A stretch of 22,957 nucleotides of DNA. It comes from a virus. Location of the stretch: positions 1-22,957 of IMG/VR virus record IMGVR_UViG_3300042397_003508. One strand, 5' to 3'. This document shows, piece by piece, positions 14-8,430 of the stretch. The position numbers and the translations under genes are program-made. Every line of letters begins with the position of its first letter. Position 1 is the first letter of the stretch. The notes under the pieces were generated by a model. The model did no database searches, had not been told where the DNA came from, and saw nothing but the letters and a program-made list of their open reading frames with translations.

Positions 14-87
14 TCCCGAATGGTGTAGTGGCAGCACAGCAGACTTTGACTCTGTTAGTATAAGTTCGATTCTTATTTCGGGTGCCA
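14..87 (+). tRNA. tRNA-Gln (TTG)
   Basis: Anticodon arm GCAGA-CTTTGAC-TCTGT gives anticodon TTG. The T-arm has a canonical TTCGATT loop, and CCA is encoded. Positions 1 and 72 are T and T, so the first acceptor pair is open; glutaminyl tRNAs usually have a weak 1-72 pair. The CCA is also the first part of the inverted repeat that begins the following RNA element. Confidence 0.93.
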
Positions 88-277
88 TAAGTGTGACAAT
101 TGAGTGTAGATGTTGAGAAAACAAGAGCCTCGAAATTCTTGTGAGTTGGGACTAATTATCCTAGTAGCAAACAAGTAACAACTAAAACTACGTACCTCTA
201 ACCCTGTCCGGACTTTATATCAAGGGTAAAATGTAGGCGAATGAGGGAGGCGCCTAACTTAGTTGTTACACTTATGG
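85..277 (+). ncRNA. Structured spacer RNA with 15-bp terminal stem (element A)
   Basis: The ends 85-99 and 263-277 are inverted repeats (14 Watson-Crick pairs and one G-T) enclosing about 160 nt with no convincing ORF. Internal short hairpins include CAAGA/TCTTG and ACCCT/AGGGT. The 5' arm includes the CCA of tRNA-Gln, so folding of this RNA and maturation of the tRNA 3' end may compete. Positions 151-182 resemble 3746-3769 in the RNA at 3623-3780, with two 4-nt insertions, suggesting two members of one RNA family. Function is unknown. A tmRNA was considered because of a GCAAAC stretch, but no tRNA-like domain is present. Confidence 0.6.
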
Positions 278-284
278 TAATTTT

Positions 285-2034: not shown

Positions 2035-2103
2035 AGGATGAGTACAGCAAATTTAAAAGCTAAACTTTTTGGTTGTCTAGCGACAAAAATCATCCTGTTG
2101 TTT
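2035..2103 (+). repeat. TTCAGCAA-type element, copy 1 (stem AGGATGA/TCATCCT)
   Basis: A 7-bp stem (2035-2041 with 2090-2096) encloses GTACAGCAA just after its 5' strand and is followed by GTTGTTT. The interior folds as AAAAG/CTTTT and a TTGTC-TAGC-GACAA hairpin. Four more copies lie at 2632, 2934, 5350 and 5476. The stem sequence changes between copies while pairing is kept, and the inner and trailing motifs stay constant. This suggests a selected RNA structure, probably a protein-binding RNA. Confidence 0.7.
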
Positions 2104-2551: not shown

Positions 2552-2626
2552 TGCGGGTAGGTCAAGTTGACCCGGAAGGTCTCATAAGCCTTACTGAGCG
2601 TGGAGCGTTACCACGACCCGCTACCA
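2552..2626 (+). tRNA. tRNA with CAT anticodon and non-canonical T-loop (copy 1)
   Basis: Anticodon arm AAGGT-CTCATAA-GCCTT gives CAT. The T-stem CGTGG/CCACG is perfect but its loop is AGCGTTA in place of TTCRANY. The D-arm is GTCA-AGT-TGAC, with a 3-nt loop and no GG. Positions 1 and 72 are T and T; an open 1-72 pair is a hallmark of bacterial initiator tRNA, but the three G-C pairs of an initiator anticodon stem are absent. Decoding identity is Met or Ile2, unresolved. Confidence 0.8.
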
Positions 2627-2631
2627 ATTTT

Positions 2632-2691
2632 AGGATTCATTCAGCAATTAAAAAACTTTTATTGAAAAAAAGCAAAAAGAATCCTGTTGTT
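2632..2691 (+). repeat. TTCAGCAA-type element, copy 2 (stem AGGATTC/GAATCCT)
   Basis: The 7-bp stem is 2632-2638 with 2679-2685. ATTCAGCAA follows the 5' strand and GTTGTTAA follows the 3' strand. The interior is A-rich with a weak CAAT...ATTG helix. It lies between two tRNAs that both carry CAT anticodons and the unusual T-loop. Confidence 0.72.
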
Positions 2692-2933: not shown

Positions 2934-3034
2934 AGAATCGTTTCAGCAAACCACACGTATGACAGTGGATGTCAATTTGCCTTCTAAGCAAACCTCGCTG
3001 GTTCGAATCCAGCTACAAAAAAGCGATTCTGTTT
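2934..3034 (+). repeat. TTCAGCAA-type element, copy 3, enclosing a tRNA-like core
   Basis: The 7-bp stem AGAATCG (2934-2940) pairs with CGATTCT (3024-3030). TTTCAGCAA follows the 5' strand and GTTTTT follows the 3' strand. Between them lies the D-, anticodon- and T-arm core of an Arg-type tRNA. A closing stem below a tRNA-like domain is also the layout of bacterial Y RNAs. Confidence 0.7.
2951..3013 (+). tRNA. tRNA-Arg-like core (TCT) without acceptor stem
   Basis: D-arm TGAC-AGTGGAT-GTCA, anticodon arm TTTGC-CTTCTAA-GCAAA (TCT) and T-arm GCTGG-TTCGAAT-CCAGC are all perfect. The seven bases expected on each side to form the acceptor (CCACACG and TACAAAA) do not pair, and there is no CCA. The arms are too well kept for a decayed gene, so it is more likely a tRNA-like module of the surrounding element than a chargeable tRNA. 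A normal tRNA-Arg(TCT) is present at 7189. Confidence 0.65.
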
Positions 3035-4521: not shown

Positions 4522-4965
4522 ATGGAATACATAATTTTTTTTCTATTATGGACTTTTCTTATGTACTGGGTACATAGAGCGGTTCATTCTTCAAAAATTT
4601 TAGGTCATTTTCATTGGCAACATCATAAAGTTATCAATACAAAAAATACCAAGTGGCATTGGAACAATATTTTTTTATACAATGATGATATTAAGAGTAC
4701 GATTGATTTGTGGATAACAGATGTTATTCCAACTCTAGTTTTTTGTTATGTAACCGGTCATTGGTGGATATTTGTTTTGTACTATGTCTACGCCGCATTC
4801 TTCCAGGAAAATATTGAACATTCGGATAAAGTTAATGTTCCTTTTCTAAGTTCTGGTAGATGGCACTTGACACATCATAAAGATTCACGATATAATTACG
4901 GTTTCGTTTTCACTTTCTGGGATAAATTATTTAAAACAGAAAAAAACATTGGGTCCTTAGTTTAA
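4522..4965 (+). CDS. Fatty-acid-hydroxylase-type membrane diiron protein
   Basis: This 147-aa membrane protein has the histidine clusters of the fatty acid hydroxylase/sterol desaturase superfamily: H18-RAV-H22, H29-F-H31-WQ-H34-H35, H100 and H115-LT-H118-H119, which would ligate two irons. Hydrophobic segments lie at about 2-17 and 67-95. Family members use O2 to hydroxylate or desaturate lipids or carotenoids in the membrane; they are normally longer (about 200-300 aa), so this is a minimal version. ATG 4522 follows tRNA-His by four bases. The last 15 bases, including the stop, are also the first 15 bases of tRNA-Val, so tRNA maturation must cut the mRNA. A lipid-modifying metabolic gene inside a tRNA array is unusual; the substrate is unknown. 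Confidence 0.82.
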   Translation: MEYIIFFLLWTFLMYWVHRAVHSSKILGHFHWQHHKVINTKNTKWHWNNIFLYNDDIKSTIDLWITDVIPTLVFCYVTGHWWIFVLYYVYAAFFQENIEHSDKVNVPFLSSGRWHLTHHKDSRYNYGFVFTFWDKLFKTEKNIGSLV

Positions 4966-5024
4966 AAGTAGAACACCCTCCTTACAAGTGGGATACGGCG
5001 GAGCGTTACCGTCAGGACCTACCA
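4951..5024 (+). tRNA. tRNA-Val (TAC) with non-canonical T-loop
   Basis: Anticodon loop CTTACAA gives TAC on a stem with one T-T mismatch. The acceptor GGGTCCT pairs with AGGACCT. T-stem GGCGG/CCGTC with loop AGCGTTA; D-arm GTTT-AAAAGTA-GAAC without GG. CCA encoded. Its 5' end overlaps the stop codon region of the preceding gene. Confidence 0.86.
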
Positions 5025-5291: not shown

Positions 5292-5320
5292 TTGACTCTA
5301 CAAATTTTTTAAGATACAAT
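5292..5320 (+). promoter_or_regulatory. Promoter for the Ro60-like gene and its leader RNAs
   Basis: TTGACT, 17 bases, TACAAT. A perfect dyad CAATAC-GT-GTATTG (5317-5330) overlaps the -10 box and the expected start site, so it may be an operator. The transcript would carry element copies 5 and 4, then the Ro60-like gene and the following RNA. Confidence 0.75.
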
Positions 5321-5349
5321 ACGTGTATTGATTGATTGAGAAAGTTTTA

Positions 5350-5468
5350 AGACAAGGTTCAGCAACACTCCAAACATGGAACTGATGGGCAGAGATAACT
5401 TCAAGCCTATCAAGGTGAGTTTCGATTTCTCACTGTAATCAAAAAGTAGGAAACTTGTCTGTTATTTT
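5350..5468 (+). ncRNA. TTCAGCAA-type element, copy 5, with tRNA-like arms (candidate Y-like RNA)
   Basis: The 7-bp stem AGACAAG (5350-5356) pairs with CTTGTCT (5454-5460), with GTTCAGCAA inside and GTTATTTT after. The interior can form three hairpins in cloverleaf order: TCCA/TGGA, an 8-bp TGATGGGC/GCCTATCA helix with a 14-nt loop, and GTGAG/CTCAC whose loop holds TTCGATT, the classic T-loop. It starts about 22 bases after the promoter dyad and lies upstream of the Ro60-like gene, where bacterial Y RNAs are often found. No acceptor stem or CCA of a normal tRNA is present. Confidence 0.6.
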
Positions 5469-5475
5469 AGGTTTT

Positions 5476-5542
5476 AGGGTAGGTTCAGCAAATAAAAAGC
5501 ATTCAACTTGTAATTGAAAACGCAAAAACTATCCTGTTATTA
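5476..5542 (+). repeat. TTCAGCAA-type element, copy 4, with anticodon-arm-like hairpin
   Basis: The 7-bp stem AGGGTAG (5476-5482) pairs with CTATCCT (5529-5535, one G-T), with GTTCAGCAA inside and GTTATTA after. The interior hairpin TTCAA-CTTGTAA-TTGAA (5502-5518) has 5 bp and a 7-nt loop with C32, T33 and purines 37-38, like an anticodon arm with TGT. It ends 16 bases before the start codon of the Ro60-like gene, so protein binding here could control translation. Confidence 0.7.
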
Positions 5543-5558
5543 AGAAAAGGAAATTATT

Positions 5559-6983
5559 ATGTCAACATTTGTCGAAGCAGTTGTAAATCAAGAAGCCCGT
5601 ACCACTAATGGTATGAAGGCTCGCAAGTCTACATCTAATGCAGTTGTGGATTTGTTCTATAATGCCGGCGCAAGCCGTGGTAAGGACATTGTTCCTGCAT
5701 TCACTGCCGCTTTGGTTGAAAATCGTGAATTGGCTCTCCGTGTGACTGCATGGCTACGTGATGTACGTGGCGGTGCTGGTGAGCGCCAATTGTTCCGTGA
5801 TATTCTCAAATATCTGGAAAAGAACGATGTTCAAGCGGCTAAGGCACTGTTGCATAAAGTTCCTGAACTTGGCCGTTGGGACGATATCTTTGTGTTCGAA
5901 ACCAAAGAATTGAAAGAAGAAGCTTACACCATGCTTGGTGATGCTCTCCGTGCCAAAAACGGTCTTGCGGCTAAATGGACTCCTCGCCAAGGTAAGATTG
6001 CGGCTGAAATTCGTGCATTCTTCGGAATGTCACCAAAATTCTACCGTAAGTCTCTTGTTGAGTTGACCAAAGTTGTGGAACAAAACATGTGTGCAAAAGA
6101 ATGGGATACCATTAATTTCTCTCATGTTCCTTCCGTAGCGGCCGCACGTTACAAAAAGGCTTTTAACCGTAACACACCAAAGTATGCTGAATACGTTCAG
6201 GCTCTGGTGAAAGGTGATAAGCCTGAAGTAAAAGTAAACGCATCTGTTGCTTACCCATATGATGTGTTGAAAGGTCGTATTAACACCTACGGCATTTCTT
6301 TTGACAAGACCGAATTGGACTTGGTACAAAAGCAATGGGAAGCATTGCCAAATTATGTTGGTGATGCTAACATCCTACCTCTTGTTGACGTTTCTGGTTC
6401 TATGACCACCTCAGCAGGCAAAAACACCAAACTAACTTGTTTGGAAGTTTCTGTCTCTCTTGGCCTGTATCTTGCAGACAAGAACAAAGGAAAATTCAAG
6501 GATACGTTCCTGACTTTTTCTGATAAGCCAGAACTGTTGCACCTAAAGGGCAACATCAACCAGAAGATTGACCAAATGGTTAAATCTACTTGGGGTATGA
6601 GCACCAACCTTAATGCGGCATTCAAGAAAATTCTTGATACTGCTGTTAAAGGTGGTGTTGCAAAAGAAGAAATGCCAGGAATGGTGTTGATTCTGTCTGA
6701 CATGCAATTCAACCAATGTGTTGTGCATGACGATAGTGCAATTGAAATGATTGCACGTAAGTACCAAGAAGCAGGATATGAACTTCCAAAAGTTGTATTC
6801 TGGAACTTGAATGCTTCATATGGCAATGCCCCAGTGAAGTTTGACAAGTCTGGTACTGCTCTGGTTTCTGGATTCTCACCAGCAGTAGTGAAGCCATTGC
6901 TGAGTGGAAACCTAGATAGCTTCACACCAGAGTCCGTGATGTTGAAAACCATCATGGATGAACGTTACACAGTAAATCTGTAA
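5559..6983 (+). CDS. Ro60-like RNA-binding protein (DUF2828/TROVE-type plus vWA)
   Basis: This 474-aa protein has an N-terminal helical-repeat region of the DUF2828/TROVE kind: NGMKARKST at 17-25, RDVRGGAGERQLFR at 67-80, GRWDD at 105-109, and FSHVPSVAAARYKKAF near 187-202. A vWA domain follows from about 270, with a complete metal site: DVSGS 277-281, Thr349 and Asp381. Ro60 proteins form a ring that holds Y RNAs on the outside and binds 3' ends of misfolded RNAs in the centre; bacterial versions work with RNases in stress and RNA quality control. AAAGG precedes the ATG. Two TTCAGCAA elements form its 5' leader and an 82-nt stem-closed RNA follows its stop, all next to tRNAs, so it probably binds these RNAs. 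I am sure of the family; the phage role is inference. Confidence 0.85.
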   Translation: MSTFVEAVVNQEARTTNGMKARKSTSNAVVDLFYNAGASRGKDIVPAFTAALVENRELALRVTAWLRDVRGGAGERQLFRDILKYLEKNDVQAAKALLHKVPELGRWDDIFVFETKELKEEAYTMLGDALRAKNGLAAKWTPRQGKIAAEIRAFFGMSPKFYRKSLVELTKVVEQNMCAKEWDTINFSHVPSVAAARYKKAFNRNTPKYAEYVQALVKGDKPEVKVNASVAYPYDVLKGRINTYGISFDKTELDLVQKQWEALPNYVGDANILPLVDVSGSMTTSAGKNTKLTCLEVSVSLGLYLADKNKGKFKDTFLTFSDKPELLHLKGNINQKIDQMVKSTWGMSTNLNAAFKKILDTAVKGGVAKEEMPGMVLILSDMQFNQCVVHDDSAIEMIARKYQEAGYELPKVVFWNLNASYGNAPVKFDKSGTALVSGFSPAVVKPLLSGNLDSFTPESVMLKTIMDERYTVNL

Positions 6984-6990
6984 AACGTAT

Positions 6991-7010
6991 GGGGACTTGA
7001 AAGAGTCCTC
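6991..7010 (+). terminator. Hairpin after the Ro60-like gene, possible terminator or processing stem
   Basis: GGGGACT (6991-6997) pairs with AGTCCTC (7004-7010) around TGAAAG, 7 bp with one G-T. The following bases (ATTTTAAAG) are only weakly T-rich, and they form the 5' arm of the next RNA. Termination may be partial, with downstream RNA still made. Confidence 0.4.
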
Positions 7011-7091
7011 ATTTTAAAGTATACTGCCGAAGTTGGTTCGGTTAGGCAGGCTGCATCCAACAAGCCATGTCCGTTAGTATACTTTAAAATG
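7010..7091 (+). ncRNA. 82-nt RNA with perfect 16-bp terminal stem and kissing loop (candidate Y-like RNA)
   Basis: Ends 7010-7025 and 7076-7091 are perfectly complementary over 16 bp. The 50-nt interior forms hairpin 1, CCGAA-GTTGG-TTCGG (7027-7041), and hairpin 2, GGCAGGCT (7045-7052) with AGCC-A-TGTC (7063-7071). The loop of hairpin 1 (GTTGG, 7032-7036) is exactly complementary to CCAAC (7057-7061) in the loop of hairpin 2, so a 5-bp kissing interaction is likely, similar in spirit to a tRNA elbow. It lies 26 bases after the Ro60-like gene and 3 bases before tRNA-Leu(TAA). A long helix formed by the two ends is the Ro60-binding form in Y RNAs. Confidence 0.7.
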
Positions 7092-7094
7092 ATT

Positions 7095-7269: not shown

Positions 7270-7301
7270 TTTGCATAAATACCCTAGTTGATACAATCAA
7301 C
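7270..7301 (+). promoter_or_regulatory. Probable promoter with dyad over the -10 box
   Basis: TACAAT (7292-7297) has a weak -35 (TTTGCA at 7270, 16-base spacer). A perfect dyad GTTGAT-ACA-ATCAAC (7287-7301) covers the -10 box and could be an operator or an early RNA hairpin. AAAAGGG just upstream of ATG 7318 is the ribosome site. Confidence 0.45.
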
Positions 7302-7317
7302 CTCAAAAGGGAATAAA

Positions 7318-8430
7318 ATGCTCAAAAAGTTAACCGCAATGGTGCTTTTTGTAATGTCTTTATCATCGGTCGCACAGACCACATATGATTCGAAAACCTT
7401 GGTAGATACAAACAGTACATCTACCTCGACAAGCACAGTAAACACAAACAACACTAGCACGGCCACGACCGTCAACACTAATAACACTAATGTTAATAGT
7501 GCTTCTACTAATGTCAATACAAGCACCAGTGTAAACACGAATAATAACGTGAACACTGGAACAATGACGTACAATAACAATAACGTCAATGCTTCAACTT
7601 CCACTAGCACAGTTACGAACAATAACAACAATGTGAATAGTGGTACAATGACGTACAACAATAACAACGTCAATACCAGCGCCAGCACATCTACGAATGT
7701 GAACACGAATAACAACGTGAATAGTGGTACAATGACGTACAACAATAACAACGTTAACAGCAGTGTTAATACTTCTACAAGTACAAACAACAACGTTAAC
7801 ACTGGTGACATGACCAACCGCAATATTAACACAAGTACATCAACAAATGTTAATACGAACAATAATGTGAATAGTGGTGATATGACCAATCGTAACATCA
7901 ACACTAACACATCTACTTCAGCGTCAACGTCAACAAATAATAATGTCAACACCAATGTTCAAACTGGTGACATGACAAATCGCAATATTAATGAAAGTAA
8001 TATTACACAAAGAATAATTCAACCGCCTCCAACGGCTGTTGCACCAACAATGATGAGTGGTGGTAACAATGATTTGTGTACTACTGGTTCAAGTAGCGCG
8101 GTTCAAACTCAAATTTTCGGTGTAAGTTCTGGTGGCACCGTGCGTGATGAAAATTGTGAAAGATTAAAACTATCTAAGACTCTTTACGATATGGGTATGA
8201 AAGTGGCTGCGGTTGCTACCATGTGTCAAGACCGCAGAGTTTGGGATGCGATGATGGCAGCAGGCACTCCTTGTCCGTATGAAGGCAGAATCGGCGATGC
8301 GGCTAAGTCTGCATGGGAAGCAAATGTAGACAAAATTCCTGCACCAATAAAAGAGAAAAAAGATGACACTTATACAAAGATTGGTATCGGCAGTTTCCTC
8401 GGCGTTCTTGTTCACAAGCTTATCAAGTAA
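7318..8430 (+). CDS. Secreted Asn/Thr/Ser-repeat protein with Cys-containing C-terminal domain
   Basis: The start is ATG 7318, preceded by AAAAGGG; earlier in-frame codons lie in the promoter. The 370-aa product begins with a signal peptide (MLKKLTAMVLFVMSLSSVA). Residues about 30-225 are a low-complexity region of Asn, Thr and Ser built from imperfect units such as VNSGTMTYNNNNVN and VNTGDMTNRNIN. At DNA level a 38-bp stretch (7633-7670) recurs exactly at 7717-7754. The C-terminal part (about 245-350) is ordered, with four cysteines (LCTTG, ENCERL, MCQDR, TPCPY) and a final hydrophobic segment. Similar C-terminal domains occur next to virion genes of aquatic T4-like phages, so a virion-surface or envelope role is my guess. 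The 3' end carries the signal peptide of the next gene in another frame. Confidence 0.75.
   Translation: MLKKLTAMVLFVMSLSSVAQTTYDSKTLVDTNSTSTSTSTVNTNNTSTATTVNTNNTNVNSASTNVNTSTSVNTNNNVNTGTMTYNNNNVNASTSTSTVTNNNNNVNSGTMTYNNNNVNTSASTSTNVNTNNNVNSGTMTYNNNNVNSSVNTSTSTNNNVNTGDMTNRNINTSTSTNVNTNNNVNSGDMTNRNINTNTSTSASTSTNNNVNTNVQTGDMTNRNINESNITQRIIQPPPTAVAPTMMSGGNNDLCTTGSSSAVQTQIFGVSSGGTVRDENCERLKLSKTLYDMGMKVAAVATMCQDRRVWDAMMAAGTPCPYEGRIGDAAKSAWEANVDKIPAPIKEKKDDTYTKIGIGSFLGVLVHKLIK

What the first reader, a model, noticed from the sequence alone, without database searches (positions are those of the whole stretch)
5292..7091. Candidate phage Ro60/Y-RNA-like system inside a tRNA array
A Ro60-like protein (DUF2828/TROVE-type plus vWA with complete DxSxS metal site) is flanked by unusual RNAs. 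Upstream are two elements with a 7-bp closing stem and TTCAGCAA, one of which has tRNA-like arms with a TTCGATT loop. Directly downstream is an 82-nt RNA whose ends pair over 16 bp. Known biology: Ro60 binds Y RNAs through the helix formed by their ends, and bacterial Y RNAs carry tRNA-like modules and often lie next to the Ro gene. Inference: the phage encodes its own Ro RNP, perhaps to tether an RNase, guard phage tRNAs or degrade host RNA.
Basis: partly seen in the sequence, partly recalled or inferred. Interest (0 to 1): 0.93.

Follow-up and report, generated by a model that had tools for sequence, protein, structure and literature searches.

The report
Phage Ro60-like protein with Y-like RNAs
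A lake-type phage carries a relative of the RNA-quality-control protein Ro60 together with an apparently uncatalogued family of small tRNA-mimicking RNAs that sits beside this protein's gene in very distant phages and in bacteria, and that resembles a noncoding RNA class thought to be unique to social amoebae.

Summary
The protein at 5559-6983 (Pfam DUF2828 + DUF7788) has a predicted full-length Ro60 fold: only Ro60/TROVE structures match both domains. The two upstream elements are two of five window copies of one RNA family: a 7-bp end helix (AG...CT), NTN-CAGCAA just inside, GTT after it. In relatives the helix covaries. The family lies beside DUF2828 genes in T4-like, cyano-, Listeria, Enterococcus, Staphylococcus and Mycobacterium phages and in bacterial genomes (64 elements on the gene strand, 1 opposite). 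Phages with tRNA arrays but no such gene lack it (0 of 6). The helix closes variable modules: anticodon-arm mimics, tRNA bodies without acceptor stem, and circularly permuted tRNA bodies that match Rfam YrlA, the bacterial Y RNA. So the Ro60/Y-RNA reading is right in kind. The 82-nt downstream RNA is a different, lineage-restricted long-helix RNA whose link to the protein is unproven. Binding and function are untested. The end signature also resembles Dictyostelium Class I RNAs, reported as unique to social amoebae; homology there is open. Best filed as a new variant of the Ro60-Y RNA kind.

The parts
5559..6983 (+). Ro60-like protein, 474 aa: N-terminal helical-repeat domain (DUF2828) plus C-terminal vWA domain (DUF7788) with DVSGS metal site; PHROG 850
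   Evidence: AF2 model matches Ro60/TROVE structures over residues 9-473
5476..5535 (+). CAGCAA RNA, compact; end helix AGGGTAG/CTATCCT; anticodon-arm mimic TTCAA-CTTGTAA-TTGAA; ends 23 nt before the start codon
   Evidence: (R1 66.3 bits)
5350..5460 (+). CAGCAA RNA, long; end helix AGACAAG/CTTGTCT; T-arm-like hairpin GTGAGTTTCGATTTCTCAC
   Evidence: (R1 26.2 bits)
2934..3030 (+). CAGCAA RNA with tRNA body (D arm, anticodon arm with loop CTTCTAA, T arm TTCGAAT) and the end helix AGAATCG/CGATTCT in place of the acceptor stem
   Evidence: (tRNA model hit 2957-3017, 34.5 bits)
2632..2685 (+). CAGCAA RNA, compact; end helix AGGATTC/GAATCCT; sub-threshold Rfam hit to Dictyostelium Class I RNA
   Evidence: (36.2 bits; gathering 41.5)
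2035..2096 (+). CAGCAA RNA, compact; end helix AGGATGA/TCATCCT
   Evidence: (67.1 bits)
7009..7092 (+). Long-helix RNA directly downstream of the gene (18-bp terminal helix, variable interior); separate family, link to the protein unproven

Best explanation
The locus encodes a Ro-type ribonucleoprotein: a DUF2828-branch Ro60-like protein and a set of small RNAs that it binds. The constant part of each RNA (short helix of its own ends, CAGCAA just inside, GTT after) is the handle recognised by the protein, as the end helix of Y RNAs is by Ro60. The variable part (anticodon arm, tRNA body, or circularly permuted tRNA body as in YrlA) is an adaptor presented on the ring. Most likely the adaptors make the particle a tRNA-oriented RNA surveillance or degradation scaffold during infection: they recruit or occupy tRNA-binding proteins or nucleases and gate the ring, as Y RNA does for Ro60 and PNPase in Deinococcus. 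Shown here: fold (predicted), RNA family, covariation, linkage, tRNA mimicry. Inferred: binding, recognition by CAGCAA and the end helix, adaptor role, target. My odds: an RNP of these two parts about 0.85; surveillance or degradation scaffold about 0.45; decoy for anticodon or tRNA nucleases about 0.2-0.25. The confidence given below is for the RNP claim, not for the target.
For: Fold: AF2 model (pLDDT 78) matches TROVE 9kop (Z 17.0), Thermus phage Ro60 9l5y (16.1), Xenopus Ro60 (about 15), D. radiodurans Rsr 2nvo (12.3) over about 375-410 residues; all other listed hits cover essentially only the vWA domain. Linkage: 90 of 93 viral loci have an element within 3 kb upstream, 234 on the gene strand against 8 opposite. 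RNA-first scan: of the 12 records of 95 kb or more in the batch without a local gene copy, 10 carry the gene elsewhere. Gene-first control with a PhoH-like protein: 0 of 23 RNA, 1 of 23 protein. Six tRNA-array phages without the gene: 0 of 6 RNA, KVP40 +/+. Whole named phages with the gene: 14 of 19 RNA-positive, adjacent to the gene in Listeria, Mycobacterium, Staphylococcus and APT65. Bacterial genomes: 64 against 1 near the gene, 2 and 3 in 171 kb of distal sequence. A bacterial-style RNA pattern alone found 2 viral contigs, both with the gene beside the RNA. Y RNA body: YrlA hits inside CAGCAA elements, e.g. E=5.5e-5 and 9.1e-5, 2e-4, 1e-5. Anticodon-arm mimics in 61 of 83 compact elements against 2.5 expected; T arms in 45 of 51 mid-length ones against 0.5.
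Against: No binding data and no expression data for this phage. No TROVE Pfam hit; sequence resemblance to Ro60 is weak (PDB profile E 0.004 to TROVE entries). Named phages with the gene but no whole-genome R1 hit: Synechococcus B23, Felix-like SP116, phiN3, Campylobacter F361, Enterococcus EfV12 (the last does have an element by direct scan). Two large RNA-positive contigs lacked the gene. Elements used for the model were picked by pairing, so the 100% pairing is by construction; the strand asymmetry and the linkage are the independent evidence.
Confidence: 0.8

Rival explanations
1. The RNAs are free decoys or sponges against host anticodon nucleases or other tRNA-targeting defence: compact ones display anticodon arms of the UNU type (Thr UGU, Lys UUU, Arg UCU), larger ones whole tRNA bodies. 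The protein stabilises them or is a separate RNA-repair factor.
For: Loops CTTGTAA, CTTTTAA and CTTCTAA dominate. PrrC-type and PARIS nucleases cut tRNA-Lys (established knowledge, from memory). The Listeria phages carry an RtcB-type ligase in the same gene block.
Against: Many elements carry no anticodon arm (permuted T-acceptor-D bodies, A/T-rich loops). The CAGCAA end handle is constant whatever the module and is tied to one protein.
Confidence: 0.2
2. The elements are cis-acting leaders: structures in the mRNA upstream of the gene that autoregulate it, or processing signals between tRNAs.
For: 46 of 93 loci have an element ending 60 nt or less before the start codon.
Against: Many copies lie kilobases away among tRNAs, or downstream of the gene in Mycobacterium and Staphylococcus phages. 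Inserts differ completely while the ends stay constant.
Confidence: 0.08
3. The elements are DNA-level repeats (transposon ends, recombination sites) or decayed tRNA genes.
For: Short inverted ends; tRNA arms in many copies; location in tRNA arrays.
Against: The arms covary instead of being constant, orientation follows transcription, and the CAGCAA end recurs next to one gene family across phages of different phyla of hosts.
Confidence: 0.03

Closest known systems
Ro60 (TROVE) and Y RNA particles of animals and bacteria (Ro60, Rsr, YrlA)
   Same: Two-domain fold (helical-repeat ring plus vWA with metal site); small RNA closed by its own ends, encoded beside the gene; tRNA-like body in the T-arm, capped acceptor, D-arm order of the Rfam YrlA model, with several direct YrlA hits.
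   Different: Protein is DUF2828/DUF7788, not TROVE, by sequence. RNA end carries CAGCAA/GTT; the TROVE loci examined (two with YrlA hits) show no CAGCAA element. Many RNAs per phage, with anticodon-arm or complete D-anticodon-T modules.
Mycobacteriophage 'Ro-like RNA binding protein' and phage Y RNAs (Chen et al. 2014, as cited in PMC12282133); Listeria phage CKA15 Rsr-like protein (PMC12282133)
   Same: Same DUF2828 protein branch here (17 of 17 homologues, Tyson and Listeria included); RNAs next to the gene.
   Different: The CKA15 authors only speculated on Y RNAs. Their hottest noncoding region (26,236-26,727) coincides with a ROOL RNA hit, not with the CAGCAA cluster. I could not read Chen 2014, so some mycobacteriophage elements may already be described there.
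Dictyostelium Class I RNAs (Rfam RF01414; PMC7919456)
   Same: Start AAG, end CUGU, 6-bp end helix, about 60 nt, 11-nt motif (CCUUACAGCAA in the Rfam consensus) just inside, variable loop, many clustered copies. All eight RF01414 hits with E<=1 lie on CAGCAA elements.
   Different: Reported only in social amoebae, with an RRM protein partner (PMC7919456). Hits are below the gathering score, and none appeared in nine bacterial loci.
Ro60 of Thermus phage phiLo (PDB 9l5y)
   Same: Phage-encoded Ro60 fold (Z 16.1).
   Different: Named a TROVE-domain protein by its depositors; its RNAs were not examined here.

Membership tests
Ro60 protein family | Two-domain Ro60 fold: helical-repeat ring plus vWA | tested here: met
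   on a predicted model, full-length matches only to Ro60/TROVE structures
Ro60 protein family | TROVE domain by sequence (PF05731) | tested here: not met
   DUF2828/DUF7788 instead; no TROVE hit in 17 homologues
Ro60 protein family | vWA metal-site motif DxSxS | tested here: met
   D277, S279, S281 invariant in 17 homologues
Ro60 protein family | Binds Y RNA on the outer surface and misfolded RNA in the central hole | not testable with these tools
   Needs binding assays or structures
Bacterial Y RNA (YrlA) | Encoded next to a Ro60-type gene | tested here: met
Bacterial Y RNA (YrlA) | 5' and 3' ends form a helix | tested here: met
Bacterial Y RNA (YrlA) | Permuted tRNA-like body (T arm, capped acceptor, D arm) | tested here: inconclusive
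   Present in a subset of relatives, not in the five window copies; all hits below Rfam's gathering score of 69
Bacterial Y RNA (YrlA) | YrlA's own Ro-binding end sequence | tested here: not met
   The ends carry CAGCAA and GTT; YrlA hits match mainly the body
Dictyostelium Class I RNA | Start AAG, end CUGU, 6-bp end helix, 11-nt motif | tested here: inconclusive
   Closely similar ends (PMC7919456); CM scores 26-36 bits, gathering 41.5; none in nine bacterial loci
Dictyostelium Class I RNA | Protein partner Rnp1A (RRM) | not tested
   Not sought; a DUF2828 protein in Dictyostelium could not be looked for in these collections
tRNA | Acceptor stem with CCA end | tested here: not met
   The ends are the AG..CT helix followed by GTT

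The most novel reading that the evidence does not exclude
DUF2828 proteins and CAGCAA RNAs form an ancient second branch of the Ro60-Y RNA system, spread over phages, bacteria and perhaps archaea, and Dictyostelium Class I RNAs are its eukaryotic RNA arm, bound by an amoebal DUF2828 protein.
Probability: 0.35. Interest if true: 0.93.

Novelty: new variant of a known kind. Interest (0 to 1): 0.83.

Why it matters
It would give a function to DUF2828 (667 phage records in one collection, and many bacteria), define a recognisable RNA family with a likely protein partner in well-studied phages such as KVP40 and P100/A511, and make phage Ro particles testable in laboratory strains. It extends Y-RNA tRNA mimicry to three module types on one constant handle. 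If Class I RNAs are homologous, it offers a partner and mechanism for an abundant amoebal RNA class of unknown function.

Tried and rejected
T4 rnaC/rnaD as relatives: no R1 hit and no CAGCAA in the stretch read. cka15's hottest noncoding region as the CAGCAA cluster: it is a ROOL hit. Rfam search of nine bacterial loci for Class I or YrlA hits: none, although three other bacterial loci with tRNA-like inserts gave YrlA hits in two. NCBIfam: no family for the protein. The downstream 82-nt RNA as a CAGCAA or Y RNA: no signature; treated as a separate family. Papers: Chen 2014 and the bacterial Ro60 review are not held; nothing found on DUF2828 function, on YrlA in such phages or on phiLo Ro60. 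Whole-genome R1 in four bacteria was uninformative because only 150 candidates each were scored. Only four weak-to-good TROVE loci were available as contrast.

Full report
WHAT IS THERE. The window is a virus record (22,957 bases) whose first 7.3 kb is a tRNA array with about 28 tRNA genes. Inside it lies a 474-aa protein (5559-6983). Pfam gives DUF7788 (E=4.7e-48) and DUF2828 (E=2.1e-20), and only a hint of the Ro60 vWA model (0.0099); PHROG 850 calls the family 'RNA-binding protein'.

RNA FAMILY. Each starts AG, has a 7-bp helix between its ends, then three nucleotides, CAGCAA, a variable insert, the pairing strand ending CT, and GTT. In 80 viral loci fetched by the protein alone plus the window, a simple structural scan gave 227 elements on the gene strand and 17 on the other. 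Five of the seven pairs change on both sides among 42 compact elements; since elements were chosen by pairing, full pairing is by construction, and strand bias is the independent evidence. A covariance model R1 built from them scores all five window copies; three of the five were in its training set.

LINKAGE. Of 93 viral loci with at least 1 kb upstream, 90 carry an element within 3 kb (234 against 8 on the opposite strand); in 46 it ends within 60 nt of the start codon. These loci include those found by RNA pattern. Starting instead from an RNA pattern alone, 40 of 120 stretches hold the gene locally, and of 12 further whole records of 95 kb or more 10 hold it. A control sample drawn by a PhoH-like protein gave 0 of 23 records with R1 and 1 of 23 with the protein, at a contig end. 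Six phages with tRNA arrays but without the gene, T4 included, have no R1 hit, while KVP40 has both. In 19 named phages with roughly 30-49% identical proteins, 14 have R1 hits. In Listeria LMTA-57 (P100-like) three copies stand in tandem just before the gene, in Mycobacterium Tyson and Staphylococcus CF9 three stand just after it, and in Aeromonas APT65 four just before it. Enterococcus EfV12 has a copy found by direct scan.

BACTERIA. DUF2828 relatives also occur in genome contigs of Ruminococcus, Lachnospiraceae, Clostridia, Chloroflexi and others; some may be prophages. Within 800 nt of the gene, 64 elements lie on the gene strand and 1 opposite, in 32 of 54 loci; 171 kb of distal sequence has 2 and 3. 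All 42 R1 hits are on the gene strand. The bacterial form is typically AAGGCAC-TTACAGCAA...GTGCCTT-GT. Scanning viral contigs with that RNA pattern alone gave two contigs, and both have the gene beside the RNA.

WHAT THE RNAS CARRY. Compact elements (50-66 nt) mostly hold an anticodon-arm mimic: 61 of 83 against 2.5 expected in dinucleotide shuffles, with loops CTTGTAA, CTTTTAA and CTTCTAA; T-arm mimics occur in 45 of 51 elements of 70-119 nt against 0.5 expected. Window 2934-3030 holds D, anticodon and T arms with the AG..CT helix where the acceptor stem would be. Others are circularly permuted: T arm, capped acceptor hairpin, D arm, with the end helix where the anticodon stem would be. That is the layout of Rfam's YrlA model, and YrlA hits fall inside CAGCAA elements: L054 38.4 bits E=5.5e-5, L057 37.7 bits, L067, L004, Tyson 36.4 bits, and Akkermansiaceae L371 41 bits E=1e-5 and others. 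None reaches the gathering score of 69. TROVE loci L436 and L438 have YrlA hits but no CAGCAA element, so the body is shared while the end handle differs; this contrast rests on very few loci.

PROTEIN FOLD. An AlphaFold2 model from 55 window-family sequences (pLDDT 78) matches, over both domains, only Ro60-type structures: 9kop TROVE (Foldseek E=1.1e-8; Z 17.0 over 400 residues, 4.6 A), Thermus phage phiLo Ro60 (Z 16.1), Xenopus Ro60 (Z about 15) and D. radiodurans Rsr (Z 12.3). The other listed matches cover essentially only the vWA part. By sequence it is not TROVE.

THE DOWNSTREAM RNA. 7009-7092 folds with an 18-bp terminal helix (z=-6.8). Twenty-nine loci, close relatives, have an RNA at the same place with a helix beginning CATTTT; the first nine pairs are nearly invariant, pairs 10-16 covary, and the interior varies. 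It lacks CAGCAA and is absent from most relatives. It is real but not shown to belong to the Ro system.

CLASS I RNAS. Rfam's Dictyostelium Class I RNA is hit by the window copy 2633-2686 (36.2 bits, E=0.0013 for the window; gathering 41.5). In three searches all eight hits with E<=1 lie on CAGCAA elements. Kjellin et al. (PMC7919456) describe those RNAs as starting AAG, ending CUGU, with a 6-bp end helix, an 11-nt motif, about 60 nt and variable loops, found only in social amoebae. The bacterial elements often share TTACAGCAA, AAG starts and UGU ends, but gave no Class I hit. Homology is possible; convergence on a common binding mode is not excluded.

MECHANISM. Best reading: the constant end is the protein's handle and the variable tRNA-like part an adaptor, so the particle is a tRNA-oriented RNA surveillance or degradation scaffold. 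RNA family and linkage are shown and the fold is predicted; binding, the adaptor role and the target are inferred. The main rival is that the RNAs are decoys for tRNA-targeting nucleases.

PRIOR WORK. Phage Ro60-like proteins and Y RNAs have been noted: Chen et al. 2014 for mycobacteriophages (cited in PMC12282133; not readable here), a TROVE protein in jumbo phages (PMC7824862) and a Listeria phage with an Rsr-like protein and abundant noncoding RNA nearby (PMC12282133). I found no report of the CAGCAA family, its link to DUF2828, or the Class I resemblance, within the libraries held.

Noticed in passing
window 2552-2626, 2695-2766, 2855-2925, 4951-5021: Four tRNA-like genes share the T-loop AGCGTTA instead of the canonical TTCRANY, while 21 T arms in the window are canonical; in relatives 21 such loops against 3098 canonical ones.
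   Followed up: partly
window 83-279, 841-995, 1152-1256: Further RNAs with long terminal helices (23, 21 and about 13 bp) between tRNAs, like the downstream 7009-7092 RNA but of other sequence; no perfect long helix of this kind in four shuffled controls.
   Followed up: partly
L331 1609-2160 (Listeria phage LMTA-57; cka15 about 26,206-26,757): Rfam ROOL RNA hit (88.5 bits, gathering 99.1) coincides with the most transcribed noncoding region reported for Listeria phage CKA15, so that region is probably ROOL rather than a Y RNA (PMC12282133).
   Followed up: partly
L331 about 1145-1470: Another promoter-like TTGACA site followed by a noncoding stretch upstream of tRNA-Pro in Listeria phages; possibly one of CKA15's other abundant RNAs.
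   Followed up: no
L331/L350 gene block, cka15 CKA15_050: An RtcB-type tRNA splicing ligase gene lies a few genes downstream of the DUF2828 gene in Listeria phages, recalling bacterial Ro60-RtcB operons.
   Followed up: no
window 7288-8430: ORF with long N/T/S-rich repeats (such as NSGTMTYNNNNVN) next to the tRNA array.
   Followed up: no
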